A stretch of DNA of 64,000 nucleotides, from NCBI RefSeq assembly GCF_900108345.1, contig NZ_FNVV01000013.1, forward strand, positions 186,001 to 250,000, given 5' to 3'. The translations under genes were made by a program, and so were the position numbers. Shown here in pieces: positions 2,577 through 54,600 of the stretch (positions are counted from its first letter, which is position 1; each line of letters begins with the position of its first letter). The stretch is from Bacteroides ndongoniae (GTDB lineage Bacteria > Bacteroidota > Bacteroidia > Bacteroidales > Bacteroidaceae). Below the pieces are notes generated by a model, which saw only the letters and a program-made list of their open reading frames with translations, was not told where the DNA came from and did no database searches.

Positions 2577-2879
2577 CCTGCCTCATAAAGCAATGTGTCC
2601 GGCTGTGACCGAAGGTAAGAACCGGTAGCTTTTCCTGACAGTCTTGTGCCCTTTCCACCTCGCTATACGACCGAGGGGGCCTAAGTATAGGACTGAGGGT
2701 ACCTAAGTATAGGACTGAGACCCCCTCTCTATACGACTGAGAGGGTCTAAATATAGAGCTCTGATAGTCAGTGGTTTACAGAAAGGCTTGCTGATGGTTA
2801 TAAAAAGTTACATTTACCCGTCGGTCCCGCCATTCGGACACCCGAAAAAACAGAAGTAAAACCTTAAAATCAGAATATC
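2577..2879. other. Gene-free gap inside the hut operon
   Basis: The 303 bp between hutI and the cyclodeaminase gene hold no reading frame of note. The middle is occupied by the 22-bp tandem array at 2664-2769. No convincing TAnnTTTG promoter is seen before 2880, so the downstream genes may depend on read-through. Confidence 0.7.
2664..2769. repeat. Tandem array D, 22-bp period, five units
   Basis: Units begin at 2664, 2686, 2708, 2730 and 2752, each 22 bp long and opening TATA(C/G)GAC(C/T)GAG, except the last, which diverges after TATAG. Several end in CTAAG or CTAAA. The third unit has CCCCCTCTC where the others have GGG-rich sequence, so the units can pair with each other on one strand. 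No protein is encoded, and the units are diverged rather than identical. Confidence 0.85.
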
Positions 2880-3509
2880 ATGTTAGTCGATTTAACCGTA
2901 AAAGAGTTTTTGAATAAAGTAGCCGGCAACGCCCCCGTGCCCGGCGGCGGCAGTGTGGCTGCCTTGTGTGGTGCCATCGCCTCGTCCTTAGCCGCCATGG
3001 TGGCCAACCTGACCCTCGGCAAGAAGAACTACGAAGCCTGCCAGGAGCAGATGCAGCACATCGCCGCGCTGGCAGCGGAACGGAAGGACGTTTTCGTGGC
3101 CGACATCGACCGCGACTCCGAAGCCTACGACCGCGTATTTGCCTGCTTCAAGATGCCCAAGGCCACCGATGAGGAGAAGAGTGCCCGCAGCGCCGCCATC
3201 CAGGAGGCCACGAAGCACGCCGCTCTGGTACCGATGCAGGTGGCGCGCAACGCTTACGAGCTGATGAGCGTCATCGTGGAAGTGGCCCGCCACGGCAACC
3301 GCAACGCCGTGACCGACGCCTGCGTGGCTATGATGACCGCCCGCAGTGCCGTGCTGGGCGCACTGATGAACGTGCGCATCAACTTAGGCTCGCTGAAGGA
3401 CAAGGAGTTTGCCCTGAGCTTGCAGGACGAGGCCGACGAACTGGAACGCCAGGCCCTGCTGAAAGAGAAAGCATTGTTGGACGAAATAAACCGGGAGCTG
3501 CGAGTATGA
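2880..3509 (+). CDS. Formimidoyltetrahydrofolate cyclodeaminase
   Basis: Releases ammonia from 5-formimino-tetrahydrofolate to give 5,10-methenyl-tetrahydrofolate, so that histidine carbon enters the one-carbon pool. The 209 residues match the helical FTCD C-terminal family. The N-terminal glycine-rich motif APVPGGGSVAALCGA is diagnostic of this fold. In vertebrates the domain is fused to the formiminotransferase; here it is separate, as in many Bacteroidota and Clostridia. The stop overlaps the hutH start by 4 bp (ATGA), indicating translational coupling with hutH. Confidence 0.92.
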   Translation: MLVDLTVKEFLNKVAGNAPVPGGGSVAALCGAIASSLAAMVANLTLGKKNYEACQEQMQHIAALAAERKDVFVADIDRDSEAYDRVFACFKMPKATDEEKSARSAAIQEATKHAALVPMQVARNAYELMSVIVEVARHGNRNAVTDACVAMMTARSAVLGALMNVRINLGSLKDKEFALSLQDEADELERQALLKEKALLDEINRELRV

Positions 3510-5002
3510 ACAACGTGTATTATGTAGGGTCGGGCGACCTGACCTTCGAACTGATCGAGCGAATCATCAACGAAAACCTGAAACTGGAACTGGCTCCGGA
3601 AGCCAAGCTGCGCATCCAGCGCTGCCGCGACTATCTGGACCGGAAGATTGCCGAATCCGACGTACCCCTGTACGGCATCACCACCGGCTTCGGCTCGCTG
3701 TGCAACAAGAACATCTCGCCCGACGAACTGGGCACCCTGCAGGAAAACCTCATCAAGAGCCATGCCTGCAGCGTGGGCGAGGAGATAAGGCCCGTTATCG
3801 TGAAACTGATGATGCTGCTCAAGGCACATGCCCTGTCGTTGGGGCACAGCGGCGTGCAGGTCATCACCGTGCAGCGCATCCTCGACTTCTTCAACAACGA
3901 CGTCATGCCCATCGTCTATGACCGCGGATCCTTGGGCGCTTCGGGCGACCTGGCACCGCTGGCCAACCTCTTCCTGCCCCTCATCGGCGTGGGCGACGTC
4001 TATTACAAAGGCAAGAAACGCGAAGCCATCAGCGTGCTCGACGAGTTCGGCTGGGAGCCCGTCCACCTGATGAGCAAGGAAGGACTGGCGCTGCTCAACG
4101 GCACCCAGTTCATGAGCGCCAACGGTGTGTTCGCCATCCTCAAGGCCCGGCGCCTCAGCAAGAAGGCCGACCTCATCGCCGCCCTGTCGCTCGAAGCCTT
4201 CGACGGGCGCATCGACCCCTTCATGGACTGCATCCAGCAGATACGCCCTCATCAGGGACAGATAGAGACAGGCGCAGCCTTCCGCACGCTGTTGGAGGGC
4301 AGCGAGCTCATCGCCCGGCCCAAACAGCATGTGCAAGACCCTTATTCGTTCCGTTGCATTCCGCAGGTGCACGGCGCCACCAAGGACGCCATCCGCTACG
4401 TGTCGTCGGTGTTGCTCACCGAAATCAACTCGGTGACGGACAATCCCACCATCTTCCCCGACGAGGACTGCATCATCTCCGGCGGTAACTTCCACGGTCA
4501 GCCGCTGGCCATCTCGTACGATTTCCTGGGTATCGCCCTGGCCGAGTTAGGCAACATCTCCGAGCGACGCATTGCCCAGCTCATCATGGGCCTGCGCGGG
4601 TTGCCCGAGTTCCTTGTGGCCAATCCGGGGTTGAACTCCGGCTTCATGATACCGCAGTATGCAGCCGCCTCGATGGTCAGCCAGAACAAGATGTACTGCT
4701 ACGCCGCCAGCAGCGACTCCATCGTGTCGAGCAACGGGCAGGAGGACCACGTCAGCATGGGCGCCAATGCCGCCACCAAGCTCTTCCGCATCATGGACAA
4801 TCTGGAGCACATCCTCAGCATCGAGCTGATGAACGCCGCGCAGGGTATCGAGTTCCGCCGTCCGCTCAAGACGTCGCCTCTGCTGGAACGCTTCCTGCAC
4901 GAGTACCGCAAGGAAGTGCCTTTTGTGAAAGACGACATCGTGATGTACAAGGAAATTCACAAAACCGTCGCGTTCCTGAACCGGACGAAGTTTGATTACT
5001 GA
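3506..5002 (+). CDS. hutH: Histidine ammonia-lyase
   Basis: Deaminates L-histidine to urocanate, the entry step of the pathway. The GSLGASGDLAPLANL segment contains the Ala145-Ser146-Gly147 triad that cyclises to the electrophilic MIO group. NGTQFMSANG, QDPYSFRCIPQVHGA and TDNPTIF are further family motifs. At 498 residues it has the normal length. It starts inside the stop of the cyclodeaminase gene and is the last gene of the operon. A 16-bp perfect inverted repeat 29 bp downstream (5032-5073) may end the transcript. Confidence 0.96.
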   Translation: MNNVYYVGSGDLTFELIERIINENLKLELAPEAKLRIQRCRDYLDRKIAESDVPLYGITTGFGSLCNKNISPDELGTLQENLIKSHACSVGEEIRPVIVKLMMLLKAHALSLGHSGVQVITVQRILDFFNNDVMPIVYDRGSLGASGDLAPLANLFLPLIGVGDVYYKGKKREAISVLDEFGWEPVHLMSKEGLALLNGTQFMSANGVFAILKARRLSKKADLIAALSLEAFDGRIDPFMDCIQQIRPHQGQIETGAAFRTLLEGSELIARPKQHVQDPYSFRCIPQVHGATKDAIRYVSSVLLTEINSVTDNPTIFPDEDCIISGGNFHGQPLAISYDFLGIALAELGNISERRIAQLIMGLRGLPEFLVANPGLNSGFMIPQYAAASMVSQNKMYCYAASSDSIVSSNGQEDHVSMGANAATKLFRIMDNLEHILSIELMNAAQGIEFRRPLKTSPLLERFLHEYRKEVPFVKDDIVMYKEIHKTVAFLNRTKFDY

Positions 5003-5031
5003 ATGATATAATTTTTATTAATCTTTTGACC

Positions 5032-5073
5032 ATAGAAAGAAAACTCACTTTTTATATTGAGTTTTCTTTCTAT
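5032..5073. promoter_or_regulatory. Perfect 16-bp inverted repeat: terminator or TetR operator
   Basis: ATAGAAAGAAAACTCA at 5032-5047 is matched exactly by its reverse complement at 5058-5073, with a 10-base AT-rich loop. The right arm overlaps the first bases of TATCTTTG (5071-5078), a -7-type box for the TetR gene starting at 5141. It could be the hut operon terminator, the regulator's own operator, or both. Confidence 0.65.
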
Positions 5074-5140
5074 CTTTGCTTCGTTTAATTTTCAACATGG
5101 AATCCATAGTAATGGGTTTGTACAGAGAGAGAGCATCGAT

Positions 5141-5782
5141 ATGGAAGAAAATACGAAGAATCCTGCCCCGCGGGCTGAACTGAAAAAACGAATCATCGAC
5201 AGTTCGCTCGAGGCATTTACAAAACATGGCATCAAGAGTATCACGATGGACGAGATAGCCTCCTCGTTGGGCATCTCGAAACGTACCCTCTACGAGGTGT
5301 TTTACGATAAGGAGACACTGCTGGAAGCATGCGTGCTTCGCCGCCAGGAAATGGAGGAACAGTACCTGAAGGAGGTACAAGCCGTAGCCGGCAACGTGTT
5401 GGAAGTGATCTTGAAGCTTTTCCAGTACAGCATCGAGCAGTTTCATGCCACCAATAAGAAATTTTTTGAGGACATAAAGAAGTATCCGCGGGTGGCTGAG
5501 CTGATGATGAACCGTCACAACCGCAACTCGGAAGAGGCCATCCGTTTCTTCGAGGAAGGCGTTTCGCAAGGTCTCTTCCGCGATGATGTCAATTTTGAGA
5601 TCATGAGCCTGCTTGTACGCGAACAGCTGGACTTGCTGATGAACACGGACATTTGTCAGAAGTATTCGTTCCTCTCTGTTTACGAAACAATTATGTTTAC
5701 TTATCTGCGTGGCATCTCGACCATCAAAGGGGCGCAGGTCTTGGAAAACTTTATCTGTGAATATCGTAGAAACAAGCGATAA
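5141..5782 (+). CDS. TetR/AcrR family transcriptional regulator
   Basis: The N-terminal helix-turn-helix is clear: IDSSLEAFTKHGIKSITMDE, then IASSLGISKRTLYEVFYDK. The remaining 150 or so residues would be the ligand-binding and dimerisation domain; the ligand is unknown. The start at 5141 is preferred because a longer frame from 5057 would place its start upstream of the likely -7 box at 5071-5078. At 213 residues it has normal TetR length. The 16-bp inverted repeat overlapping its promoter suggests autoregulation. It lies 46 bp upstream of the SGNH/MBOAT genes on the same strand and may control them. Confidence 0.88.
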   Translation: MEENTKNPAPRAELKKRIIDSSLEAFTKHGIKSITMDEIASSLGISKRTLYEVFYDKETLLEACVLRRQEMEEQYLKEVQAVAGNVLEVILKLFQYSIEQFHATNKKFFEDIKKYPRVAELMMNRHNRNSEEAIRFFEEGVSQGLFRDDVNFEIMSLLVREQLDLLMNTDICQKYSFLSVYETIMFTYLRGISTIKGAQVLENFICEYRRNKR

Positions 5783-5800
5783 CGTTTCCTGCATTTTTCG

Positions 5801-5808
5801 TACTTTTG
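5801..5808 (+). promoter_or_regulatory. Possible -7 box before the O-acetylation genes
   Basis: TACTTTTG fits TAnnTTTG of the Bacteroidota primary sigma factor and lies 20 bp before the ATG at 5829. No clear TTTG -33 box is seen at the expected distance. AAGGAG at 5817-5822 is a good ribosome binding site for the same start. Confidence 0.4.
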
Positions 5809-5828
5809 CCCTCCTCTAAGGAGTAAGT

Positions 5829-7211
5829 ATGGAAAAAAATGCATTGAAATATACCGCTATCTGGGTCTTCCTTGTGCTGGGTGGGCTGTTGCTGATGTAC
5901 CTGCTGCCCGACCTGAACATTGGCGGGCATAAGCTGAGGCGGGTCGATCTGCTGAGCGACGTGCGTCCGCCTGCTGTTCCGCTCGAAGAACCCGATACGC
6001 TGCTGCCTCCGCCGCCCAAGCCGAAGCCGGCCTTTGCCGATACGTGCCGTACGGGCATGACCTGCATCGAAGACTACAGCGATTCCGCCATGCGTGGCAT
6101 GGCTCCTTTCTACCGGGCACTGGACGAATTGTCGTCCCGCTCGCGCCGGGTGGTGCGCATCGCCTACTTCGGCGATTCCTTTATCGAAGGCGACATCCTG
6201 ACTGCCGATTTGCGCGAGATGCTGCAGCGCAAGTACGGTGGCCGTGGGGTAGGTTTTGTGCCCATCACTTCCATCGTCAGCGGGTTCCGCCCCACCGTAC
6301 GCCATACCTTTGGCGGTTGGGAAAGCCATTCGGCAATGGACTCGGTGGCTTTCGACAAGAGCCGGCAGGGTATCTCCGGCCATTACTTCATTCCCGGCCC
6401 CGGCGCCTATGTCGAGCTGAAGGGGCAGAGCAGATATGCCTCTCTGCTGGATACGTGCCGGCGTGTCTCCATCCTGTTCTGTAATAAGGGTGAAACCACC
6501 ATTACGGTGCGTGTCAACCGCAACGAACCCGTTACTGAAACGTTTCAGCCTACCGGCGGCCTGCAGGCGATGACCGTAGAAGGCCGTATCGGGTCGGTCC
6601 GCTGGACGGTGGATCGGGCCGACTCTACGCTGTTCTATGGCGCAACGATGGATGGCGACGCGGGCATTGCGGTAGATAATTTCTCGCTGCGCGGTACGTC
6701 GGGACTCTCTCTGCGCTCCATACCGATGCATACGCTGCGCGAATTTGACCGCGAACGCCCGTACGACCTCATTGTTCTTCAGTACGGGCTGAATGTGGCT
6801 ACCGAGCTTGGCAGGAAGTACGATAAATACATAGCCGGCATGCATACCGCGCTGGAGCACCTGAAGGAAGCCTTTCCGCAGGCCGGCATCCTGATTGTGG
6901 GCGTGGGCGACCGCGACTACAAGACCGAAGAAGGCGAGTTGCGAACCATGCCGGGAGTAAAGAACCTGATGCGTTATCAGCAGAATCTGGCGGCCGATGC
7001 CGGCGTGGCATTCTGGAATCTGTTCGAGGCCATGGGTGGCGATGGCAGCATGGCACGACTGGTGGAGGCGAAACCTGCAATGGCCAATTACGACTATACA
7101 CACATCAACTTCCGCGGCGGAAAGCATCTGGCAAAATTGCTGTACGAAGCGCTGGTTTACGGAAAGGAACAGTATGACAGGAGGCGTGCTTATGAAGAAA
7201 TGGAACCTTGA
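5829..7211 (+). CDS. Membrane-anchored SGNH-family protein (O-acetylation partner)
   Basis: A 460-residue protein with one N-terminal membrane segment (about residues 8-27), a proline-rich linker near 50-65, and a periplasmic SGNH-hydrolase domain. Block I is YFGDSFIEGD with G115-D116-S117, and the C-terminal catalytic pair is in DYTHIN (D422, H425). Such proteins act with MBOAT acyltransferases as AlgJ/AlgX-like or PatB-like enzymes that place acetyl groups on exported polysaccharide. The MBOAT gene lies two genes downstream. It overlaps the next gene by 20 bp. The acetylated polymer cannot be told from sequence. Confidence 0.82.
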   Translation: MEKNALKYTAIWVFLVLGGLLLMYLLPDLNIGGHKLRRVDLLSDVRPPAVPLEEPDTLLPPPPKPKPAFADTCRTGMTCIEDYSDSAMRGMAPFYRALDELSSRSRRVVRIAYFGDSFIEGDILTADLREMLQRKYGGRGVGFVPITSIVSGFRPTVRHTFGGWESHSAMDSVAFDKSRQGISGHYFIPGPGAYVELKGQSRYASLLDTCRRVSILFCNKGETTITVRVNRNEPVTETFQPTGGLQAMTVEGRIGSVRWTVDRADSTLFYGATMDGDAGIAVDNFSLRGTSGLSLRSIPMHTLREFDRERPYDLIVLQYGLNVATELGRKYDKYIAGMHTALEHLKEAFPQAGILIVGVGDRDYKTEEGELRTMPGVKNLMRYQQNLAADAGVAFWNLFEAMGGDGSMARLVEAKPAMANYDYTHINFRGGKHLAKLLYEALVYGKEQYDRRRAYEEMEP

Positions 7212-8127
7212 CAAGCTGTCGGCCGGGTGGCGCAACGCATTGTGCTGCTTAGTGTGGATGCTGATTGCCGTGCCGGTGGTGCAGGCGCAGGATGCCGTGC
7301 CGCTTTGCCCCATGCCGGACGTGGTGGCGGTCGGTGCCGATACGTTGCCGGTCTGCTCCATGCGTACCGATACCATTGCTCTGCCGCGGCTGACGTATCC
7401 GGCTGCTTTCCGGCAGTTGGCCGACAACGTACTGACCGACAGTCTGGGCGTCCTCGACCCGATCTGGGAGCAGTTGAGGCTGCGTCACTTGGGCGTCGTG
7501 ACGGACACGTTGCGCATCGTCCACGTGGGCGACAGCCATATCCGCGGACATATCTTCCCACGCACGGTAGGCGAAGCGATGCAGCGCGATTTTGGTACGG
7601 TCAGTTATACCGACCTCGGCATTAACGGGGCGTTTTGCGTCACCTTTACCCGTCCCGACCGTATAGACCAGATAGCCGAGCTGCATCCGGACATGCTGAT
7701 ACTGTCGTTCGGTACCAACGAGAGCCATAACCGTCGATACAACTCCATGACCCACTACAGGCAGATAGATGACCTGGTGCGTATGCTGCGCGAACGTTTG
7801 CCGGAGGTGCCCATGCTGATGACGACCCCTCCCGGCTCGTACGAAAGCTTCCGCCAAAGCCGGCGCCGTCGTACCTATAAGATCAATCCCCGTACCGATA
7901 GGACCGTGCAGACCATCCGCCGCTATGCCGACGACAATGGTCTGGCCGTCTGGGACCTGTACAATATTGCAGGAGGTGTCAGACGCGCCTGCCTGAACTG
8001 GCAGGAGGCCGGCCTGATGCGCCCCGACCATGTGCACTATTTGCCCGAGGGCTATCGTCTGCAGGGCGAGATGCTGTATCAGGCTCTGCTGAGGGCTTAC
8101 AACGATTATTGCATGGGGATGAGATAA
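7192..8127 (+). CDS. Exported SGNH/GDSL hydrolase-family protein
   Basis: About 311 residues with a signal peptide (hydrophobic LCCLVWMLIAVPVVQAQD near residues 18-35). Block I is HVGDSHIRGH (G113-D114-S115). LILSFGTNESH is a likely block III and PDHVHYLPEGY the C-terminal Asp/His block, so the catalytic set looks complete. The start at 7192 is chosen for AGGAGGC at 7179-7185 and the signal peptide; a longer frame exists upstream but lies inside the previous gene. The overlap with that gene and 31 bp to the MBOAT gene indicate one operon. It probably acts as a second acetyltransferase or esterase of the module. Confidence 0.82.
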   Translation: MKKWNLDKLSAGWRNALCCLVWMLIAVPVVQAQDAVPLCPMPDVVAVGADTLPVCSMRTDTIALPRLTYPAAFRQLADNVLTDSLGVLDPIWEQLRLRHLGVVTDTLRIVHVGDSHIRGHIFPRTVGEAMQRDFGTVSYTDLGINGAFCVTFTRPDRIDQIAELHPDMLILSFGTNESHNRRYNSMTHYRQIDDLVRMLRERLPEVPMLMTTPPGSYESFRQSRRRRTYKINPRTDRTVQTIRRYADDNGLAVWDLYNIAGGVRRACLNWQEAGLMRPDHVHYLPEGYRLQGEMLYQALLRAYNDYCMGMR

Positions 8128-8158
8128 GATTTGATGAAACTCTAAATTCAGTTGTTTT

Positions 8159-9658
8159 ATGGATGATTTGTTTTCCTGGCTCCATATCGACGTGACGCGT
8201 TTGCGCGATGTCTTTGTGTACGATCCGCATTCGCCGATGATCTTCAGCAGTGGCATTTTTCTCTGGCTGTTTGCGGCCTTTATCGTCGTCTATCTGCTGT
8301 TGCAGCGTCGTACGACGGCCCGGCTGATGTTTGTCACGTTGTTCTCGTATTATTTCTATTATAAAAGCAGCGGTACCTATTTCTTTTTGCTGGCCGTCGT
8401 CACCGTAAGCGACTTCCTGCTTGCCCTGCTGATGGACCGTACGGTGACCCGCTGGAAACGCAAGCTGTGGGTGGTCGTCAGTCTGTGTGTCAACCTGGGC
8501 TTGCTGTGCTACTTCAAATACACCAATTTCCTGCTCGAATGCTGGGCATCGCTGACGGGCGGCACCTTCTCCATGCTGGACATCTTCCTGCCTGTGGGCA
8601 TTTCGTTTTTCACCTTCCAGTCGCTGAGCTACACCATCGATGTGTATCGGCGCGAGATAAAGCCGCTCACCAATTTGCTCGATTACGCATTCTATGTATC
8701 CTTCTTCCCGCAATTAGTGGCGGGTCCCATTGTGCGCGCCCGCGACTTTATCCCGCAGATCCGCCGCCCGTTGTTTGTTTCCAACGAGATGCTGGGGCGC
8801 GGCATCTTTCTGATAGTGAGCGGCTTGTTTAAGAAGGCGGTGATATCCGATTATATCAGCGTCAACTTTGTAGAGCGCATTTTCGATAACCCTACGCTCT
8901 ATTCGGGGGTAGAGAACCTGATGGGGGTATATGGCTATGCGTTGCAAATCTATTGCGACTTTTCGGGCTATAGCGATATGGCGATAGGAATAGCCTTGTT
9001 GCTTGGTTTCCATTTCAATATCAACTTTGACTCGCCCTATAAATCGGCCTCGGTCACCGAGTTCTGGCGCCGTTGGCACATCTCGCTGTCCAGTTGGCTG
9101 CGCGACTATCTGTACATCTCGCTTGGAGGCAACCGGAAGGGGAAAGTGCGGCAGTACGTCAACCTGATTATTACCATGTTTCTGGGTGGGCTGTGGCATG
9201 GTGCTTCCTGGAACTTTGTGCTGTGGGGTGTGCTTCACGGTGTGGCCTTGGCAGTGCATAAGTTCTGGATGTCGCTGACGGGGCGCAAGAAGGGCGAGCA
9301 GAGTCATGGCATCCGGCGTTTCTTCGGGGTGGTCGTAACTTTCCACTTCGTATGTTTCTGCTGGATCTTCTTCCGCAATGCCGACTTCGCTACGTCGGTC
9401 GATATGCTTCGACAGATTTTTACCGTGTTCCGTCCGCAACTGTTGCCGCAATTGCTGGCCGGTTATTGGGAAGTGTTTGCCCTGATGGGGCTGGGATATG
9501 TACTTCACTTCCTGCCCGACAGTTGGGAACGTGCCTGTACAAAAACAGTAATCCGCCTCCCCCTGCTGGGAAAGGCGGTACTGATGATTGCACTGATTTA
9601 TCTGGTTATTCAGATGAAGAGTTCGGACATCCAGCCCTTCATTTATTTCCAGTTCTGA
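8159..9658 (+). CDS. MBOAT family O-acyltransferase (AlgI/DltB-like)
   Basis: A 499-residue multi-pass inner-membrane protein. GGLWHGASWNFVLWG contains the conserved MBOAT histidine (H347), and EFWRRWHISLSSWLRDYLYI and FFPQLVAGPI are typical of the AlgI branch. AlgI-like proteins move acetyl groups from cytoplasmic donors across the membrane to SGNH partners, and two such partners are encoded immediately upstream. The likely outcome is O-acetylation of a capsule, exopolysaccharide or peptidoglycan. The gene ends only 10 bp from the end of the convergent GH20 gene, leaving no room for a separate terminator. Confidence 0.92.
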   Translation: MDDLFSWLHIDVTRLRDVFVYDPHSPMIFSSGIFLWLFAAFIVVYLLLQRRTTARLMFVTLFSYYFYYKSSGTYFFLLAVVTVSDFLLALLMDRTVTRWKRKLWVVVSLCVNLGLLCYFKYTNFLLECWASLTGGTFSMLDIFLPVGISFFTFQSLSYTIDVYRREIKPLTNLLDYAFYVSFFPQLVAGPIVRARDFIPQIRRPLFVSNEMLGRGIFLIVSGLFKKAVISDYISVNFVERIFDNPTLYSGVENLMGVYGYALQIYCDFSGYSDMAIGIALLLGFHFNINFDSPYKSASVTEFWRRWHISLSSWLRDYLYISLGGNRKGKVRQYVNLIITMFLGGLWHGASWNFVLWGVLHGVALAVHKFWMSLTGRKKGEQSHGIRRFFGVVVTFHFVCFCWIFFRNADFATSVDMLRQIFTVFRPQLLPQLLAGYWEVFALMGLGYVLHFLPDSWERACTKTVIRLPLLGKAVLMIALIYLVIQMKSSDIQPFIYFQF

Positions 9659-9668
9659 TCTGTCGCTA

Positions 9669-18792: not shown

Positions 18793-18799
18793 TAGTAGA

Positions 18800-18835
18800 A
18801 GCCTCTTCGGACAGTTCCGGAGGGGCTTTTTTTTT
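18800..18835 (+). terminator. rRNA operon terminator
   Basis: AGCCTCTTCGGA pairs with TCCGGAGGGGCT (two G-T pairs) around a short loop, then nine T residues. Confidence 0.92.
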
Positions 18836-18970: not shown

Positions 18971-19086
18971 CTGTGTTCCGGTGCAACAGTTACTGCACTG
19001 TTAGTGCACCAACTGTTGCACTGCGAGTGCACTGACTACTGCACTGTGAGTGCAATAACTGGTGCACTCACTGGGGATAACTGGGG
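18971..19086 (-). repeat. Tandem array A1, four 23-bp units
   Basis: Four units start at 18981, 19004, 19027 and 19050, each GTGCA-N8-TGCAC-N5, so every unit is a small inverted repeat. Flanks are CTGTGTTCCG on the left and GGGGATAACTGGGG on the right. The same element lies in the opposite direction at 43259-43378, including both flanks. It is listed on the minus strand relative to that copy. Confidence 0.9.
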
Positions 19087-34470: not shown

Positions 34471-35031
34471 GTTTGCCTGTTTTTCCGATTAGGCTGCAGA
34501 CACTACGATACGTGTATTTGCAGCCTTTCTACCACACTTGTGTCGCTCGTGTGGGACACTTGCACGGCTCGCGAGCAACACTTGTACGGCTCGCGAGCCG
34601 TGCAAGTGTTGTATATCGGGTTTGCTGGGCTGTTGTAGGGAGCACTGTAAAAGGCTTTAATACAGAGTCTTGTATTTTGTATTGTTTTTGTTCCGGAGAG
34701 AACAATGTTTCTTTTATGCCGTACGCATGTTTGGAAGGTGTTCCGGCAAAGATGTATGTGTATATGTTTTTTCTTTCACTGCCGTTTCTATAACGGTTGT
34801 TGTGTTTCACGTTTCACCGTAAACGGCTATTCCCCAGTTGGTTGCTGTGAAAGGTGCATGCAGTTGAGGCCTTTTGTGTGTGAAAGGTGAAATACTTTTC
34901 TGCCTCAGAGCAACAAATGTCGAAATTAATTGTTTACTTTGTGAATGTTTGTGAGGGAGGGATGCGGCTTGTGTAGTTTGGCATAGGTATGATTCGCCGT
35001 CCTTTACAAAAAAACACTTCGTATCTTGTGT
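34471..35031. other. Gene-free gap with array B1
   Basis: 561 bp without a credible gene. It holds tandem array B1 (34534-34611) and further on two GTGAAAGGTG copies (34848 and 34878) facing a TTTCACGTTTCACC at 34806. The second B site (49626) is followed by the same GTGAAAGGTGAA motif. Confidence 0.75.
34534..34611 (+). repeat. Tandem array B1, 22-bp period
   Basis: Units start at 34534, 34556 and 34578 with ACACTTG, followed by a half unit GTGCAAGTGT. The end (34578-34609) is a 32-bp palindrome with one mismatched pair, centred on GGCTCGCGAGCC. It is related to B2 at 49626-49708. Confidence 0.88.
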
Positions 35032-43056: not shown

Positions 43057-43091
43057 AAAGCGTGGAACTGTTGCAAGTTCTGCGCTTTTTT
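43057..43091 (+). terminator. Terminator of the nucleotidyltransferase gene
   Basis: AAAGCG and GAACT pair with AGTTC and CGCTTT across a short loop, then six T residues. Confidence 0.8.
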
Positions 43092-43440
43092 GTTACTACA
43101 GGTCAGGCCAAGTGGGGAAAAAAGTAACGAAACAGTAATTTTCTCCGGTTGAATACTTTTTGATAGAAAAGGACAGCCGCATCAAAGCAGGCGGCTGTAC
43201 CTACTCGCTAACTAACGGCCTGAGTAATGGATGGCTAAGGCTTAACGGCTGGTTACAGTTCCCAGTTATCCCTTGTTAGTGCAATAACTGGTGCACTAAC
43301 AGTGCAGTAGTCAGTGCACTCACAGTGCAATAGTTAGTGCACTTGCAGTGCAGCAGGCAGTGCACTGGAACGGCACAGTATGCGCATTATCTTTTCCTGA
43401 TTTAGTTAGATGCTTTTTCGGGCAGATGTGGTATAAAATA
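43092..43440. other. Gene-free gap with array A2
   Basis: About 350 bp with no credible gene between a terminator and the left end of the insertion sequence. Array A2 occupies 43259-43378. The rest shows nothing I can name. Confidence 0.7.
43259..43378 (+). repeat. Tandem array A2, four 23-bp units
   Basis: Units GTGCA-N8-TGCAC-N5 start at 43279, 43302, 43325 and 43348. The flanks CCCAGTTATCCC and TGGAACGGCACAG match those of A1 read on the other strand. When the two elements are aligned by their flanks, the second unit has the same N8 (GTAGTCAG) while the first has the exact reverse complement (ATAACTGG against CCAGTTAT). Confidence 0.9.
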
Positions 43441-43510
43441 AAAGAGGGTGTGTCGTAATACGCGATTCACCCTCTTTTCTTTATCAGCGATAAGAGCGTA
43501 GTTAACTCTT

Positions 43511-46300: not shown

Positions 46301-46324
46301 CTTATGATAGTTTTCATCAGCTTA

Positions 46325-47387: not shown

Positions 47388-47585
47388 ATAAAATTAGCAT
47401 AGACTTGTTCATAGAAGAAAGTTATCTTTTAGATTGAAAAGTTATAATTATATTCAGTTTACATTCGCCGGCAGGTTTTAGGTGGGGAGTATGGGGGGGT
47501 ATTTTGTCTGTTCGGCCTAAAAATGAGCTTCCCGATTTTGTTCTGCCTGCTGTTTCCATTATCTTTGCCCGAAAAGTAGAAGATT

Positions 47586-48425: not shown

Positions 48426-48621
48426 GGATTTCCCTACCAGGGAATAGAGTATGTGACGAGGGAGGGGAATTTTCTCTCCCTATTTTTGTGCCATGAGCAA
48501 GGCACCGGAGCGGAAATGGCCGGCGTTTGACAGGCTTCGCACTAGAGAGTAGAGAGAACGGAGCCGGAATCCTTGCCGATAGTAACATGAAGAAATCAAT
48601 ACTTTAAAAAAGGAGGGAACC

Positions 48622-49401
48622 ATGAAACGATTTATCATCCTGTTTTGTACCGTTCTGGCAAGTACTGTTTTGTGTAGTGCTGCGATGAGCAGCAGCCGTG
48701 TGCGTCTTGAAGCCCGTTTCCTGACGGACAAAATGGCTTACGAACTGAAGCTGAGCAAAGCGCAGTATAACGATGTGTACGAAATCAACTACGACTTTAT
48801 CGCGAACATCGGTTCGTTGATGGACAATGTGCTTCGTGGCGAAGAGTGGGCATTGAACCGCTATTACGATTGTCTGGACATCCGCAACGACGACTTGCAC
48901 TGGGTGCTCAACCGTAGCCAGTACGGCCACTTCATTCAGGCAGCCCATTTCTTCCGTCCTGTTTATGTATCGGGCGGACGTTGGAATTTCCGCATTTATC
49001 TGACTTACACCAACCATAAGCATTTCTATTATCCGTGTCCTCCACACTATAAGACGTATTGCGGTGCACATGCTCGCCCTCGTCACAACCATGTGAGTTA
49101 TTATAAAGGACGTTACCATCATGCGTTTTACGCGGGCAATTTTCGCATCCGCGATGGTAAGCACTATCATTCCAGCCGCCGTTCGGACTTTGGAAGCATC
49201 CGCTTGCGTCCCGGTTCGTCAAAAGCTCCCGACTGGAAAGCACCGAGTCGTCCGAAACCCAAACCCGAAAAGGCTCCGGTGAAAGTCATTCGCCCTAAAA
49301 AAGACAAGGATAAGGCCCCGGCTCACCGCCCTTCAAGAGAGCCTTCGAGAAAGGAACAGAACGACCGTGCTTCGTCCAACTCCATACGAAAAAGGGCGTG
49401 A
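48622..49401 (+). CDS. Exported basic protein of unknown function
   Basis: 259 residues with a signal peptide (FIILFCTVLASTVLCSAAMS). The first half has LEARFLTDKMAYELKLSKAQ, which resembles the LTxEQ-type helices of Spy/CpxP-like periplasmic chaperones. The middle is rich in His and Tyr (YTNHKHFYYPCPPHYKTY, HARPRHNHVSYYKGRYHH), which could bind metal. The C terminus after about residue 200 is Lys/Arg/Pro-rich and probably unstructured. GGAGGG at 48611-48616 is a good ribosome binding site. I know no named family. Confidence 0.75.
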   Translation: MKRFIILFCTVLASTVLCSAAMSSSRVRLEARFLTDKMAYELKLSKAQYNDVYEINYDFIANIGSLMDNVLRGEEWALNRYYDCLDIRNDDLHWVLNRSQYGHFIQAAHFFRPVYVSGGRWNFRIYLTYTNHKHFYYPCPPHYKTYCGAHARPRHNHVSYYKGRYHHAFYAGNFRIRDGKHYHSSRRSDFGSIRLRPGSSKAPDWKAPSRPKPKPEKAPVKVIRPKKDKDKAPAHRPSREPSRKEQNDRASSNSIRKRA

Positions 49402-49949
49402 AATGTACGATTTTTGCTGACGATGTTACGTAGAGTGAAGTTTTTGTTACCAGAATGCAAGTGATGAAGAATGCTTTCAGAAAATGTATGAAGCGTTACA
49501 AAAGCGTGACAATGACTCTGTAACTTGCTGATTATGACGATTGTCAGTTTTTGTCAGTTACTTTTTCTTGTGTGTAATTCTCATTTTATTTAATTTTAGA
49601 CACTGATACAGAGGGGCTTCGAGCAACGCTTGTGTTGCTCGTGAGCCACACTTGTGTCGTTCGTGAGCCGTGCAAGTGTTTCTCGCGAGCCGTGCAAGTG
49701 TGGCTCACAACGGCTGTAGGTAGTTTCCGGTGCTGAAGTAGATGTTTGTGTTCGCCATGTGCCACTTGGCGGTTGTAAAGTCCCTCTTTGTAACAGCTGT
49801 TAGGGGAAAAGAAAGGTGAAAGGGTGAAGGCTGTAGCCGGAAACAACACTGTCTGAAGACAGATGTTTTTCTCTCCTTTCACGCTTTCACCGGCTTCTAA
49901 CTGTTGATTATCAGTGGAATGTGGTGAAAGGTGAAGTCTCACACTGGCT
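49402..49949. other. Gene-free gap with array B2
   Basis: 548 bp without a credible gene. It holds array B2 (49626-49708) and then GTGAAAGGTGAA-type motifs in both directions between 49816 and 49940, the same combination as after array B1. Confidence 0.75.
49626..49708 (+). repeat. Tandem array B2, 22-bp period
   Basis: Units start at 49626, 49648, 49670 and 49692. The first two begin AC(G/A)CTTGTGT and the last two begin with the reverse complement form GTGCAAGTGT, so the array turns around at its centre. CTCG(T/C)GAGCC or TTCGTGAGCC is shared by units 1-3, and the array is clearly related to B1. Confidence 0.88.
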
Positions 49950-51917
49950 TCACAATTCTTTTGATTCACTTTCCATTTCTTCTTCCCCTTCCTCAGCCTG
50001 TGCATGGAAACTTGCAAGAGCTGCACCGCGCAGTGTGACATTGGCTATGTCCACTTTTGCGGCCTGTTCCTCACTGATGAGTCCTTTCTTAGCCAGCCGT
50101 TCGGCGATGAGGCGGAAGTAGCCTTCCTGGCTGTCGCGCAGACGCCCGTCGGGAGTGAAAGAACTCTTGTAATGCTTGGGCTTGGGGATGATGGATGCCA
50201 GGAAGATACACTCTTCCAGCGAGAGCTGTGAAGGCCGTTTGTCGAAGTAGAAGTCGGCTGCTTCGTGAATACCATAAATCAGAGGACCCCATTCGGCAAT
50301 GTTCAGATATACCTCGTACATGCGCTCTTTGGACGTGAGGTGTTGCCCTTCGATCAGCCAGACTATGAGTGCTTCTTCCAGCTTGCGGGCTATGTTCTTG
50401 TTGCGGGTCAGGAAGACGTTCTTGACCAGTTGCATCGAGATGGTGCTGCCTCCCCGTGCAAACTTGCGTACTTTGAGGTCGTGTATCAGGGCTTCGCGCA
50501 GTGCGTCGGGCAGGAATCCGTGATGATAGAAGAAGGCACCGTCTTCGCTTTGCATGACGGACATCTGCAACAGGTCCGGCACTTCGGCAAGGGGAGTGAA
50601 GTGCTCCCACGACGGCCCTACAGGGAAGGTGCGGACAGGACGGCCGTCTTCGTAGGCCGTGTATTCAAATTCGTCGCTCATCTTGTTCAGCGGAGTGTGT
50701 CCGAATTGGCGGATGCGGAAATTTCTGCTTTTCAGTTCCGATTCAAGGCGGAGGCTGTCCAGTTGGACAAAGTCTACATCGAGCAGAAAATGATAAGCCA
50801 GTTCGCCTTCGGTGCGGATGCCTTCCAGGTTCTCGAACAATCCCTTGGGAAGCGAGCTGAACAGTTCTTCGGCCGGAAACCAGGGCTTGTCGACGGATGC
50901 AGTGAAGTGCCATGTTGGCTCCGCTCCCGATTGTTGCGGGTGTTCTATCCGCATGTAGGGGTGAAAGATGAGTGCATTGAAGCGTACCAGACTGGCACTG
51001 TCCAGCTCGACGGATTGCGGTGCCACATCGACGTGGAAGCGAAGTTGGCCGTGGTCAAGGTTGATCTTATCGGTGGACAGACGCTTGTGATAGACGTGCA
51101 AGCCGCGCACTTCGGCTTCTCCTACAAGGCAAGCAAGGCTGTTGTCGCTTTTCTCTTGCGACAGACGGCACGTAAGGCTGTCAAACTGTACCTCGGCTCC
51201 AAAACGTCGGCGGATGTAGGGGACGGTGAGTTGGGGAGCAGTGAGCGTGGCATGCAGGCGGCGGTCCGACGGATTCAGTTCGCCACTGATGTTCCACTGT
51301 TGCCTGAGACTGTCTTCCTGAATGAGCATTTGAGACTGGAAGCGTCGGTCGGAAATGTGCAATTGAGGGATGTGGAAAGCAACAAAGTTGCTGTCGTTTC
51401 GTTCGTAGATATGAAGGTTGTTCAGTTCGCCGTTGCCCGGAAGCAGACCGAAAAGCAGGTCGAGCAGGGTATTGACGCGGCGGGCGTAGTTTCTCTCTGC
51501 TTTAGGTACTTCGGGTTGGGAGTCTTTCGAGGAGGGAAGGAACAGAAAATCGTAGTTGGCTTTGCCATCTTGCTTGATGAAGCGGAGTGAGAGTTCGTCC
51601 ATACCGACGTGACGGACATTGATATTGCCTCCAAGTAGTGCCCACAGTCCGATGCGTACATCGAGTGACTGCAGGGACAACAGTGTATCGCGTCCTGCGG
51701 GAACAACGGTCAGCCCCTCGACAGCGATGGTCCGGAGCCCTTTCATGTGCAGCTTTTCATAGCCGATGTCGAGTCCGTAGCGTTGCTCTAAACGGGCCAT
51801 GTGTTTGCCGGCTACGTGTCGTAACAAGCTTCCGCGGCTCAGGAAGGCCACTGTGGCAACCAACAGAAATAGCAGCAGTATGGAGGCTGCTGCTACTTTT
51901 ACATGTTTTTTGTTCAT
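49950..51917 (-). CDS. AsmA-like / GT51 peptidoglycan transglycosylase fusion
   Basis: 655 residues. A membrane anchor (about 9-29) is followed by some 400 residues of AsmA/TamB-like beta structure, then a GT51 glycosyltransferase domain near 445-620. The catalytic Glu458 is in QSEDGAFFYHHGF; RKFARGGSTISMQLVKN, ERMYEVYLNIAEWG and PSQLSLEECIFLASI are further GT51 blocks. It should polymerise lipid II into glycan strands in the periplasm, and it has no transpeptidase domain. Monofunctional enzymes such as MtgA have about 240 residues, so the large N-terminal part is unusual. That part shares the DTLL-L-SL-V pattern with TamB of this window. Confidence 0.88.
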   Translation of the reverse strand: MNKKHVKVAAASILLLFLLVATVAFLSRGSLLRHVAGKHMARLEQRYGLDIGYEKLHMKGLRTIAVEGLTVVPAGRDTLLSLQSLDVRIGLWALLGGNINVRHVGMDELSLRFIKQDGKANYDFLFLPSSKDSQPEVPKAERNYARRVNTLLDLLFGLLPGNGELNNLHIYERNDSNFVAFHIPQLHISDRRFQSQMLIQEDSLRQQWNISGELNPSDRRLHATLTAPQLTVPYIRRRFGAEVQFDSLTCRLSQEKSDNSLACLVGEAEVRGLHVYHKRLSTDKINLDHGQLRFHVDVAPQSVELDSASLVRFNALIFHPYMRIEHPQQSGAEPTWHFTASVDKPWFPAEELFSSLPKGLFENLEGIRTEGELAYHFLLDVDFVQLDSLRLESELKSRNFRIRQFGHTPLNKMSDEFEYTAYEDGRPVRTFPVGPSWEHFTPLAEVPDLLQMSVMQSEDGAFFYHHGFLPDALREALIHDLKVRKFARGGSTISMQLVKNVFLTRNKNIARKLEEALIVWLIEGQHLTSKERMYEVYLNIAEWGPLIYGIHEAADFYFDKRPSQLSLEECIFLASIIPKPKHYKSSFTPDGRLRDSQEGYFRLIAERLAKKGLISEEQAAKVDIANVTLRGAALASFHAQAEEGEEEMESESKEL

Positions 51918-51978
51918 ATCTTTATGCTTATAGTCTCGTCTAAATCCTTTTCGGGCACAAAGATACGACTATTTTACG

Positions 51979-53307
51979 TCATTCTATCGGTATGCCTTGA
52001 TAGAAGTCCAGAATCTTGGTGCGGAACAGATAGTCGTACTTGGCTTGCAGTTCGTCGCTTTGGGCTTTCATCAGGTTTTGTTTGGCTTCGTTATACTCGA
52101 CGGCTGTTGCCTTACCGTTGATGTACTTCTCGTTCATCAGCTGGAAGGAAGCCTGGCTGGCTTCAGTGGCGGCACAACTGCTGGTGTATTTGCTTTCGGA
52201 AGCGGTAGCGTTGTACCAAGCCTGTTGAATCTCCTTGTAGAGGGTCTTCTTGGCATTGTCCAGTTGCAGGGCATAGCTTTCGCGTTGCAGGCGGGCCGTG
52301 CGTACCCGGTTGCGGGTGCTCAGCCGGTTGAATATGGGTACGCTCAGGCTGAGGCCGATGTACTTGCTGAAGTTGTCACCCATCTGCTGGTTAAACGTAC
52401 GGTTGATGGTCGAGTAGTAACTAGTGCCCAGGCTTCCGTTCAGGTTGATTTGCGGATAGAAACCGCTCTGTGCGATGCGGATGCTGTGACGGCTGCCTTC
52501 CAGACGATACTGGGCTGCCTGTATGGCGGGCTTGTTGACTACGGCATTCTGGTAGATTTCGTCAGGAGGCGTCAGCGGAGTTATTTCCAGCTGGACGGAA
52601 GGTTCTTCCAGTGCGAAGCCTTCGGGCGTTTCCAGTTCGATGAGCTGGCTGAGGTCGAGCAGGGCCAGCTGATAGTCGTTGTTGGTCTGTACGGCAGTCA
52701 TTTCGTCTTGTGCCACACGTGCTTTGGCTTCGGCCACTTCGGCCGGCGAGGCTTTTCCCACTTCGGCCAGGCGGCTGATGCGTTGCAGCTGTTCTTTGCT
52801 CAGGGCTACCTGTCCTAAGGCTACCTGATGCAGTTCTTTGTTGAATAATACTTGCAGATAGTACGATGCCACGTTGATGGAGATGTCTTCTTTGGCTTTC
52901 TCCAGGTCAGCAGTGGCGGCTTTCAGATTCAGTTTGGCCAGTGCGTACTGGTGCGGAATCTGCAATCCGGTGAACAGGGGAACGCTGGCACTGAGTGACA
53001 TGTTGGTACCGTTGCTGCTGGTGTTGACGTATACGGTAGAGTAGTCGCCGGTGCTTTCGTCGGGCACGGCGGTTTGCGTACGTCCCCAGTTCCAGCTTTG
53101 GTTGGCGCTACCGTTCACGCTGGGCAGTCGTGCCCATTTGGCTGTATTTACTTCTACTTCGCTTTGGCGGGCGGCGTTTTCGCTTTGCCTGATGTTGATG
53201 TTGTGCTCGATGGCGTATTCAATGCAGCGGCGCAACGACCAAGTGTCTTGTGCCTGCAAGCCGGTGGCAGCACAGGCTATGCAGGCTATGGTGAGTAATC
53301 GTTTCAT
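51979..53307 (-). CDS. TolC family outer-membrane efflux protein
   Basis: 442 residues with a signal peptide (LLTIACIACAATGLQAQD). It has the two-fold repeated TolC layout with long coiled helices (ALAKLNLKAATADLEKAKED, QLQRISRLAEVGKASPAEVA). TolC proteins form the outer-membrane channel of tripartite pumps. It is the last of five genes with the adaptor, two permeases and ATPase upstream, and lies 30 bp after the adaptor. The export substrate is unknown. Confidence 0.93.
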   Translation of the reverse strand: MKRLLTIACIACAATGLQAQDTWSLRRCIEYAIEHNINIRQSENAARQSEVEVNTAKWARLPSVNGSANQSWNWGRTQTAVPDESTGDYSTVYVNTSSNGTNMSLSASVPLFTGLQIPHQYALAKLNLKAATADLEKAKEDISINVASYYLQVLFNKELHQVALGQVALSKEQLQRISRLAEVGKASPAEVAEAKARVAQDEMTAVQTNNDYQLALLDLSQLIELETPEGFALEEPSVQLEITPLTPPDEIYQNAVVNKPAIQAAQYRLEGSRHSIRIAQSGFYPQINLNGSLGTSYYSTINRTFNQQMGDNFSKYIGLSLSVPIFNRLSTRNRVRTARLQRESYALQLDNAKKTLYKEIQQAWYNATASESKYTSSCAATEASQASFQLMNEKYINGKATAVEYNEAKQNLMKAQSDELQAKYDYLFRTKILDFYQGIPIE

Positions 53308-53337
53308 AAGAATTGTCTCGGATGGTTAGGTTAGTGG

Positions 53338-54453
53338 TTAATTTTCTTCTTCATCGTTTTTGTTGGCATTGCGTATCAGGTCGTTGGTAGTGATGCCTTT
53401 CTTGACGGCTATCTTTATGCCGTCGCTCATACCTACTTCGATGGGCTGACGACGGAACTGCTGCTGTGGTACGCTGTCGGTCAGTACATAGACAAAGGTA
53501 CTGTCGTCCTTGAATTCGACGCAGCCTTCGGGAATAGCGAGTACCTGGCTGGCACGTTCGAGTACGATTTCACCGTTGGCCGAATAGCCTGAGCGGATAA
53601 CCACTGTGTCGGGCACAGTAACGGCTGCCTTGATTTCGAACTGATTGGCACCGTTGGCTTCGGTCGACTTGGGGGCGATGTACTCCAGCTTGGCTTGGAA
53701 AGTGAGGTCCTGCAAGGCACCGATAGTGATTTTCACCGGCATGCCTTCGCTGACACGGCCCACTTCGGTTTCGTCGATATTGCCACGGAAGATGAGGTCG
53801 TTCATGTCGGCCACGGTGGCGATGGTGGTTCCGTCGTTGAAGGTATTACTCATGATGACGGAGTTACCTACCTTGACGGGTACGTCCAGGATAAGTCCTT
53901 CGATAGTAGAGCGTATCAGGGTGCTGGAGAAGGAGGCACTGTTTTGGGTGATTCCCTCTTTTACAATCTGCAGGTTGTCCTTGGCGGCTTGCAGTTCTTC
54001 GCGTGCCTGGCGGACGGTGACTTCGCCTTTCTCATATTCTTCGGCACTGATCAGTTTGTCCTTGTAAAGTTTCTCTAAGCGGGCAAAGTCGGTTTCGGCC
54101 TGTCGTCCGTTGATTTCGGCCAAGCGGACGCGGCTTTCGGCAGCATTCAGTGTGCCCAGTTCGGGGATGACTTTTACCTTGGCTATCACTTCGCCCTTCT
54201 TTATCTTCTGTCCGGCTTCTTTGTAGACTTCTTCGATGATACCCGAAATCTGGGGCTTGATGAGGACCTCGTCCCGTGGTTCTATCTTACCGGTGACGAC
54301 GGTAGTCTTTTCCAGGTCGGCCACAGCAGGACGGACTGTTTCGTATACGGTGACTTCTGGTTTCGACTTCTGGTAAAGGAATACGAAGGTCCAGATGAAG
54401 ATGCCGGCAACGATAACCAGCAATGCGCTTTTCAGAATCTTTTTTGCTTTCAT
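53338..54453 (-). CDS. MacA/HlyD-like periplasmic adaptor
   Basis: 371 residues with an N-terminal membrane anchor (LLVIVAGIFIWTFVFLY). The lipoyl-like halves (GKIEPRDEVLIKPQISGIIE, VPVKVGNSVI) flank a coiled-coil hairpin (LAEINGRQAETDFARLEKLY to AAKDNLQIVKEG), followed by beta-barrel and membrane-proximal parts. Such adaptors link the inner-membrane ABC transporter to TolC. The tail ends in acidic NDEEEN. A gap of about 150 bp with array C separates it from the permease gene upstream. Confidence 0.92.
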   Translation of the reverse strand: MKAKKILKSALLVIVAGIFIWTFVFLYQKSKPEVTVYETVRPAVADLEKTTVVTGKIEPRDEVLIKPQISGIIEEVYKEAGQKIKKGEVIAKVKVIPELGTLNAAESRVRLAEINGRQAETDFARLEKLYKDKLISAEEYEKGEVTVRQAREELQAAKDNLQIVKEGITQNSASFSSTLIRSTIEGLILDVPVKVGNSVIMSNTFNDGTTIATVADMNDLIFRGNIDETEVGRVSEGMPVKITIGALQDLTFQAKLEYIAPKSTEANGANQFEIKAAVTVPDTVVIRSGYSANGEIVLERASQVLAIPEGCVEFKDDSTFVYVLTDSVPQQQFRRQPIEVGMSDGIKIAVKKGITTNDLIRNANKNDEEEN

Positions 54454-54498
54454 ATTTGATGTTTGTTGTTAGTTTATATTCTTATGTTGGGTGATTGG

Positions 54499-54600
54499 TT
54501 TTCGAGCGATCGTTCGAAGGAGTCTCGAATAGTCGTTCGAAAGTCGTTGGAATGCTCGTTCGAACGGCATTGAAATGCGGATTTCAAAGCCGTTCGAGTT
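54499..54600. repeat. Tandem array C, 23-bp period
   Basis: Three units of 23 bp start at 54510, 54533 and 54556 with TCGTTCGAA, followed by a part unit GGATTTCAAAGCCGTTCGAG that reads as the reverse complement type. A TTTTCGAGCGA half unit precedes them. The array sits between the permease and adaptor genes of one operon. Confidence 0.87.

What the first reader, a model, noticed from the sequence alone, without database searches (positions are those of the whole stretch)
2664..54600. Six intergenic tandem arrays in four families, all with a 22-23 bp unit
Array D (2664), A1 (18981), B1 (34534), A2 (43279), B2 (49626) and C (54510) differ in sequence but share a unit of 22 or 23 bp, three to five units, self-complementary parts and an intergenic place. 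Units are diverged, yet the period is exact, so the length seems selected. A period near two DNA turns would line up all units on one face, as for a DNA-binding protein or nucleoid structure; alternatively they form ladder-like RNA hairpins in 3' regions. I know of no described Bacteroides element that fits. The period and positions are seen; function is inference.
Basis: partly seen in the sequence, partly recalled or inferred. Interest (0 to 1): 0.78.

Follow-up and report, generated by a model that had tools for sequence, protein, structure and literature searches.

The report
Fourfold palindrome arrays between bacterial genes
Short DNA arrays of usually four similar palindromes, spaced two turns of the double helix apart, are scattered by the dozen between the genes of gut bacteria related to Bacteroides; they look like docking sites for a DNA-binding protein that is not yet known.

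Summary
All six arrays are present and the 22/23-bp period is a property of the genome: in 464 kb (window plus 20 evenly spread 20-kb stretches) 25 of 43 non-coding tandem arrays have period 22 or 23; Markov sequence gives none. The typical array is four dyad-symmetric 17-18-bp sites with 5-bp spacers: family A 12 of 13 arrays (one has three), family D 9 of 9. Other families (B, G, H) also have arrays of five to ten units. Family A is in 0 of 98 congeneric genomes drawn, but an unrelated-sequence family (TGTACA every 22 bp) has 24-60 exact four-site matches in each of five congeners. TGTACA pairs within 70 bp lie at 22, 44 or 66 bp, give or take 1. Arrays persist at the same gene junction in two species, twice shifted by one unit yet still four. 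Mirror positions mostly do not covary, spacers rarely pair, and A1 and A2 lie beyond predicted terminators, so an RNA ladder is unlikely, though not excluded. Best reading: tetrads of sequence-specific DNA-binding sites on one helical face near gene ends, with sequence turning over between species. Binder and function are inferred. Nearest known: BrickBuilt (P. gingivalis) and REP/BIME; neither fits fully.

The parts
2659..2763 (.). Array D: four 17-bp dyads CTNAGTATA[C/G]GACNGAG (2659, 2681, 2703, 2725) at 22 bp plus a degenerate fifth (2747); between a hutI-like gene and an FTCD_C/fchA-like gene
18981..19067 (.). Array A1: four 18-bp dyads GTGCA-N8-TGCAC (18981, 19004, 19027, 19050) at 23 bp, downstream of the rRNA operon
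18797..18830 (+). Predicted intrinsic terminator after the 5S gene; array A1 starts 150 bp beyond it
34534..34609 (.). Array B1: four units of the CTCGNGAG / ACACTTGYACGG family at 22 bp, three direct and one inverted
43279..43365 (.). Array A2: four 18-bp dyads GTGCA-N8-TGCAC (43279, 43302, 43325, 43348) at 23 bp, between convergent genes
43060..43092 (+). Predicted intrinsic terminator of the left gene, before A2
   Evidence: fold -14.0 kcal/mol plus T tract; the stricter scan does not list it
43438..43473 (-). Predicted intrinsic terminator of the right gene (IS1182-type transposase), before A2 on the minus strand
   Evidence: fold -10.9 kcal/mol plus T tract; the stricter scan does not list it
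49621..49706 (.). Array B2: four B units at 22 bp, two in each orientation, between convergent genes
54512..54599 (.). Array C: three TTCGAA sites at 23 bp plus an inverted one out of register; unique in this genome; weakest of the six

Best explanation
Each array is a tetrad of binding sites for a dimeric, sequence-specific DNA-binding protein. The four 17-18-bp dyads lie two helical turns apart, so four dimers sit on one face of about 90 bp of DNA and can bind cooperatively, much as lambda CI dimers fill adjacent 17-bp operators (comparison from general knowledge). The sites lie mostly near gene 3' ends, where the complex would act as a boundary (insulator, roadblock or nucleoid/supercoil anchor) rather than as a promoter switch. 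Several families of differing sequence share one genome, and families turn over between species, so I infer several related proteins of changing specificity. SHOWN: fixed register; four as the usual count (strict in families A and D, prevailing in TGTACA); dyad symmetry; intergenic 3'-end placement; same junction kept in two species; lineage-limited sequence. INFERRED: a protein binder, cooperativity, boundary function. Not identified: the protein.
For: Period: 25 of 43 non-coding arrays at 22/23 bp, 0 hits in 928 kb of Markov sequence. Register: TGTACA pairs within 70 bp are at 22 (69), 44 (45), 66 (20), the 7 others all within 1 bp of these. Count: family A 12 arrays of four and one of three; D 9 of 9 with four units at exactly 22 bp in either orientation, up to 4 mismatches allowed; TGTACA chains of two or more: G026 nine of four, two of three, one of two; G003 nine of four, two of three (G003 stretches partly chosen near predicted arrays). 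Family A dyads: outer A in 34 and T in 33 of 35 units, symmetric degenerate core, free spacers (the GTGCA/TGCAC arms were required by the search pattern). Seven four-site arrays at orthologous junctions of G003 and G026, two shifted by one unit yet still four. Double deviants at mirror positions are rare at some columns, e.g. 1 seen against about 10 and 7 expected for columns 1-16 and 4-13 in G003. In-array spacers are less alike than shuffled in three genomes. Placement: 51 of 51 A/B/D arrays examined intergenic; nearer the 3' end in 23 of 27 co-directional gaps (my count).
Against: No binding protein was found or tested; among 142 of 177 flanking proteins no family recurs more than four times, AraC-type HTH twice (25 of 222 families shown). 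The count of four is not universal: of 30 arrays at 22/23 bp in the unbiased sample 14 span about four units, 11 two or three, 5 five to ten; family F has 2 of four, 2 of three, 2 of two; a G array (L224) and an E array (L182) run on with further or degenerate units. Mirror-site depletion is not general: G098 shows none at column 1 and G003 none at column 7; the central pair is more complementary than expected in G003 and G112. Some arrays are reduced (L284) or absent at the orthologous place (L244 to L280). Identical arrays recur at several G003 loci and a 196-bp segment with a B array is duplicated, so dispersal by copying occurs. Conservation of the TGTACA sites is ascertained in most pairs. 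Placement near 3' ends could come from avoidance of promoters. Convergent excess in A/B/D (16 of 51 against 18 of 139 gaps) is not seen for TGTACA (6 of 31 against 26 of 147).
Confidence: 0.5

Rival explanations
1. They are REP/MITE-like non-autonomous mobile elements: the palindrome array is what a transposase recognises and copies, and the usual count reflects the transposition mechanism rather than a host function.
For: Many dispersed copies per genome; identical arrays at several G003 loci; a 196-bp duplicated segment with a B array; lineage-limited families; BrickBuilt precedent; outer inverted repeats around some other arrays (L219, L232, by eye).
Against: No transposase family among the 25 commonest of 222 families of 142 neighbours; the two Y1 transposase loci of the genome hold none of the A, B, D, E, F or TGTACA motifs and no tandem array; no target-site duplication seen in the one duplicated case; family A arrays keep no memory of unit order (core 4.07 of 8 in register, 3.98 off, 8 arrays); arrays are kept at the same junction in two species with unit turnover; no match of A in plasmids, of B in phages, or of the A pattern in viral contigs (A in phages and B in plasmids not searched).
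Confidence: 0.25
2. They act in RNA: ladders of small hairpins that end transcription or protect mRNA 3' ends, as proposed for REP.
For: 3'-end placement; 4 of 13 gene ends facing non-rRNA A arrays have a terminator-like hairpin plus T tract within or at the end of the array; most facing gene ends (36 of 51) have no predicted terminator before the array, so many arrays may be transcribed.
Against: 15 of 51 facing gene ends do have a terminator before the array (A 5 of 13, B 9 of 29, D 1 of 9; control gene ends 51 of 160 within 150 nt); A1 lies 150 bp beyond the 5S terminator; no compensatory covariation at seven of eight mirror column pairs; sequence rather than pairing is conserved in family A; exact helical register has no evident RNA rationale.
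Confidence: 0.12
3. They are by-products of replication slippage or quasi-palindrome correction without function.
For: Unit loss and register shift do occur (L195/L284, L277/L272, L296/L297); some arrays have five to ten units.
Against: Units within an array are less alike than chance, opposite to slippage; double deviants at mirror sites are rare rather than common at several columns, opposite to palindrome correction; the count is four in 12 of 13 A and 9 of 9 D arrays; 60 other Bacteroidota loci (1.06 Mb) show 1 of 55 non-coding arrays at 22/23 bp.
Confidence: 0.06

Closest known systems
BrickBuilt MITE/minisatellite of Porphyromonas gingivalis (PMC4596501; passages and section 5 read)
   Same: Order Bacteroidales (recalled); 23-nt imperfect tandem repeats, strictly intergenic, 19 loci in ATCC 33277; the paper also cites 22-nt repeats in W83
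   Different: 1 to 22.8 units rather than usually four; leader and tail segments with inverted-repeat ends; no palindromes or half-site code in what I read; one family rather than many per genome
REP / BIME with RAYT (PMC3733652, passages read; PMC2817692, start of abstract in a listing)
   Same: Short dispersed intergenic palindromes, tens to hundreds per genome, preferentially between convergent or co-directional genes; serve as protein-binding sites in known cases
   Different: REPs are 20-40-bp palindromes, single, paired or in variable clusters; here exact 22/23-bp register and usually four units; no transposase gene found with the arrays
Lambda-type operator arrays (from general knowledge)
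   Same: 17-bp dyads, spacing near 23 bp, dimers on one DNA face, cooperative higher-order assembly
   Different: A prophage switch at two loci, not dozens of copies at gene ends; no repressor identified here
Neisseria dRS3/NIME repeats (from general knowledge)
   Same: Fixed short arms around free interior bases, many intergenic copies
   Different: Not tandem arrays at a helical period

Membership tests
REP/RAYT (REPtron) | Cognate Y1 transposase gene flanked by the repeats | tested here: not met
   Two Y1_Tnp genes in the genome; their 3.3-kb loci hold no A, B, D, E, F or TGTACA motif and no tandem array; no Y1 family among the 25 commonest families of 142 of 177 array-flanking proteins
REP/RAYT (REPtron) | GTAG or CGTC tag at the foot of the hairpin | not tested
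   Not scored
BrickBuilt-type MITE | 23-nt imperfect intergenic tandem repeat | tested here: met
   (22 or 23 bp, intergenic)
BrickBuilt-type MITE | Variable copy number (1 to about 23) with leader and tail | tested here: not met
   A 12 of 13 and D 9 of 9 have four units, although B, G and H arrays vary more; A arrays L005 and L006 fill the gene gap with 7-16 bp to spare on each side
MITE in general | Terminal inverted repeats and target-site duplication | tested here: inconclusive
   Outer inverted repeats in L219 and L232 (by eye); none evident for A; no TSD seen in L033/L034
Intrinsic terminator / RNA ladder | Compensatory covariation of stem pairs | tested here: not met
   (TGTACA family in three genomes; only the central adjacent pair is more complementary than expected)
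Cooperative operator array (works like) | Dyad sites at integral helical spacing | tested here: met
Cooperative operator array (works like) | Specific protein bound cooperatively | not testable with these tools
   Needs EMSA, pull-down or ChIP

The most novel reading that the evidence does not exclude
Bacteroidaceae chromosomes carry an undescribed set of boundary or 'nucleoid anchor' sites: probably hundreds of dyad arrays per genome in several sequence families, each family read by its own fast-evolving DNA-binding protein and laid out in zones. In this genome motif B is dense at one end of contig C1 and in contig C10, which GC skew and one near-parS place around the origin, while none of the 13 A arrays lies in C10.
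Probability: 0.2. Interest if true: 0.93.

Novelty: new variant of a known kind. Interest (0 to 1): 0.78.

Why it matters
How Bacteroides and its relatives, major gut commensals, organise their chromosomes and insulate neighbouring genes is, to my knowledge, poorly understood. A defined, countable motif (dyads every 22/23 bp, usually four, at gene ends) with a control that scores nothing makes it directly testable: the binder can be fished out with one DNA bait. Turnover of the recognised sequence at constant architecture also poses a clean evolutionary question: what keeps the number at four.

Tried and rejected
RNA ladder: no covariation at seven of eight mirror pairs, and A1 and A2 lie beyond predicted terminators; not excluded, since 36 of 51 facing gene ends have no predicted terminator before the array. 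Long-range hairpin between spacers: within-array reverse-complement similarity is not above between-array similarity in G003 and G112; only S1-S2 in G098 (p 0.003) stands out. REPtron: no transposase neighbour. Phage or plasmid origin: no match of A in plasmids or B in phages; the two viral contigs with the TGTACA pattern are tandem repeats of other sequence. Same-position conservation in distant Bacteroidaceae: in L092 and L125 the next gene follows the transglycosylase directly (gap 1 and 0 bp), so there is no room for an array; the identity of that neighbour was not checked. Whole-array copying as the source of family A: unit order carries no signal. TGTACA arrays downstream of rRNA: no rRNA seed in the nine loci checked.

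Statistical cautions: the 25-of-43 histogram rests on the window plus the evenly spread stretches; stretches were partly chosen near known arrays and are not in it. Gene gaps come from my own gene finder. Spacers inherited by copying are not independent, so the permutation results are weaker than they look; one search counts each mirror double twice, so I give halved figures. The context rows count both members of four ortholog pairs. A strict regex for D found only one chain of two; the tolerant search found four units in 9 of 9. Contig order and origin are inferred from GC skew and one near-parS; the stretch at C2:30 kb also has negative skew, which leaves the order open. The C1 boundary of 1.88 Mb was chosen after seeing the data. 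The exact B places were listed only in part.

Papers: the searches listed no paper on such arrays in Bacteroides; the library holds open-licence papers only. I saw passages of PMC3733652, PMC1525189 and PMC10969869, passages and section 5 of PMC4596501, and listings of the rest.
Full report
OBSERVATION. Tandem Repeats Finder reports D, A1, B1, A2, B2 and C at the given coordinates with periods 22 or 23. Read closely, the arrays consist of imperfect palindromes of 17 or 18 bp separated by 5 bp. A: AGTGCA-N8-TGCACT, 23 bp. D: CTNAG-TATA[C/G]GA-CNGAG with RNNNY spacers, 22 bp. B: CTCGNGAG dyads alternating with ACACTTGYACGG, 22 bp. In B and D units may be inverted inside the array without loss of register. 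C: three TTCGAA sites at 23 bp, unique and weaker.

GENOME-WIDE. The window is G000:C2:186001-250000 of a 4.95-Mb genome. Family A has 13 places, D 9, B 40 scored of 118 candidates; a B half-site pattern matches 230 times with up to one mismatch, control 0. An autocorrelation scan of the window plus 20 evenly spread 20-kb stretches gives 43 non-coding arrays of period 8-40: 19 at 22, 6 at 23, and 18 others (8: 5; 14: 3; 21: 3; 10: 2; 19: 2; 11, 13, 16: 1 each). 928 kb of Markov sequence gives none. Against an even spread over periods the binomial p is 8e-20. Further families appear: TTCTCA-N6-TGAGAA (E), TTTCCCAGTTAGGAAA (F), TAAACTGATAGTTTA (G), TGCAGTGACACTGCA (H), CAAGCAATG and others.

RELATIVES. 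By BLAST in 60 relatives A has no match and B one, in G024. The exact A pattern is in 0 of 98 congeners drawn and gives 25 three-unit matches in G000, which equals 12 arrays of four plus one of three. The architecture is shared: non-coding arrays at 22/23 bp are 14 of 17 in G026, 5 of 5 in G003, 3 of 5 in G021, 4 of 7 in G030, 1 of 2 in G012 and 0 of 1 in G017. Named relatives also have them, for example B. xylanisolvens, Phocaeicola intestinalis and Mediterranea massiliensis. In 20 Bacteroidaceae or near loci 9 of 27 non-coding arrays are at 22/23 bp (two of the nine are low-complexity); in 60 other Bacteroidota loci 1 of 55. A pattern of four TGTACA at 22 bp occurs in 9 of 99 congeneric genomes: 60 in G003, 49 in G026, 45 in G098, 43 in G074 (matches not listed), 24 in G112; also 7 in G113, 5 in G034 and 3 in G119, where the listed matches are of other types and partly overlap, and 1 in G064 (not listed). 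At least one of the G003 and two of the G112 matches are of other types too. The reversed control gives 0 in all but G096 (3).

COUNT AND REGISTER. TGTACA pairs within 70 bp are at 22 (69), 44 (45) and 66 (20); the seven others differ from these by 1 bp. Chains of two or more TGTACA sites at 22 bp: G026 (360 kb) nine of four, two of three, one of two; G003 (480 kb, partly chosen stretches) nine of four, two of three; none longer. D: 9 of 9 loci have four units exactly 22 bp apart, either orientation, up to 4 mismatches. In 41 G000 pieces A has 6 of 6 chains at four, E 2 of 2, G 2 of 2, F 2 of four, 2 of three, 2 of two, isolated single sites left out; but one E array (L182) and one G array (L224) continue with further or degenerate units. 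Over all 30 arrays at 22/23 bp in the unbiased sample, coding-masked ones included, 14 span about four units, 9 about three, 2 two, and 5 five to ten. So four is strict in A and D, prevails in TGTACA and is loose elsewhere.

EVOLUTION. In family A (8 four-unit representatives) core and spacer bases are no more alike between same-position units than between different-position units (4.07 against 3.98 of 8; 0.994 against 0.991 of 3), so whole-array copying has left no trace. Seven four-site arrays lie at the same gene junction in G003 and G026; five are in register, two fit better shifted by one unit and still have four (L277/L272, L296/L297); one more pair has four against three sites (L195/L284) and one array is absent (L244/L280). 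In the five in-register pairs spacers differ at 24 of 240 positions, while 60-bp flanks are 67-82% identical. Site positions were ascertained by the pattern in most pairs and are not counted. Within an array, spacers are less alike than shuffled ones in G003, G112 and G098 (10.75 against 11.39; 11.04 against 11.73; 9.08 against 9.59 of 16). Mirror columns: complementary pairs are not in excess at seven of eight column pairs in each genome tested except a small excess at 7-10 in G098 (32 against 29), and fewer than expected at several; the central pair 8-9 has an excess in G003 and G112 (63 against 45; 32 against 22). Double deviants are depleted at columns 1 and 4 in G003, 4 and 6 in G112, and 6 in G098, but not at column 1 in G098 or column 7 in G003.

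PLACEMENT. Of 51 A/B/D arrays (13, 29 top-scoring, 9) all are intergenic: 16 convergent, 27 co-directional, 8 divergent; background gaps of 150 bp or more are 18, 90 and 31 (convergent excess p 0.004; divergent deficit p 0.21). By my count from the rows, co-directional arrays lie nearer the 3' end in 23 of 27 (three of these are rRNA paralogs). In the TGTACA family 22 are co-directional, 6 convergent, 3 divergent, and 19 of 22 lie nearer the 3' end, but convergent gaps are not in excess (background 84 co-directional, 26 convergent, 37 divergent). Five family-A arrays follow the 5S gene of rRNA operons. A1 lies 150 bp beyond the 5S terminator. A2 lies between two terminators predicted; the stricter scan does not list them. 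Of 51 gene ends facing non-rRNA A, B or D arrays 15 have a terminator before the array and 7 a terminator-like hairpin within or at the end of it; control gene ends 51 of 160.

INTERPRETATION. Fixed register, a usual count of four in unrelated sequences, dyad half-sites with a symmetric degenerate code and persistence at a junction despite unit turnover point to selection on DNA-level binding of four protein dimers. Gene-end placement suggests a boundary or anchoring role; that step is inference. The binder is unknown: among 142 of 177 flanking proteins no family recurs more than four times (GH43).

ZONATION (tentative). GC skew changes sign near C10:350 kb and C1:500 kb, also between C2:30 kb and the window; the only near-parS is at C10:496004, one mismatch. 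Exact B motifs cluster at the C1 end (16 loci in 1.88-2.33 Mb against 13 in 0-1.88 Mb; p 2e-5, boundary post hoc). None of 13 A arrays lies in C10 (p 0.06; 0.14 if rRNA copies count once).

KNOWN ELEMENTS. BrickBuilt is the closest, then REP/BIME. Membership fails on unit count and on transposase association respectively.

Noticed in passing
window 184-380: 88-bp tandem repeat (2.2 copies) with CCCCTCTCC..GGAGAGGGG arms before the gene at 411
   Followed up: no
L033 and L034, about 1471-1666: A 196-bp segment with a B array is duplicated 15 kb apart in the genome (98% identical) with unrelated flanks; no target duplication seen
   Followed up: partly
L182 15942-16166: A 225-bp array of about ten B-like 22-bp units, an exception to the count of four
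   Followed up: no
L175 13735, L184 6987, L191 2499: Intergenic period-8 repeats built on GTTAACTC/GTCAACTC recur in this genome
   Followed up: no
L257, L260, L261, L264 (G003); L242, L249 (G026): TGTACA arrays lie inside a larger shared intergenic repeat (CCGGTTTAC..array..CCCGCCTGAGA) that in L260 and L249 is followed by CTAGA-type repeats
   Followed up: partly
L085 and L086: Two paralogous-looking loci each hold a 179-aa Y1-type transposase ORF
   Followed up: partly
other Bacteroidota loci: Period-14 arrays are the commonest non-coding tandem repeats there (18 of 55)
   Followed up: no
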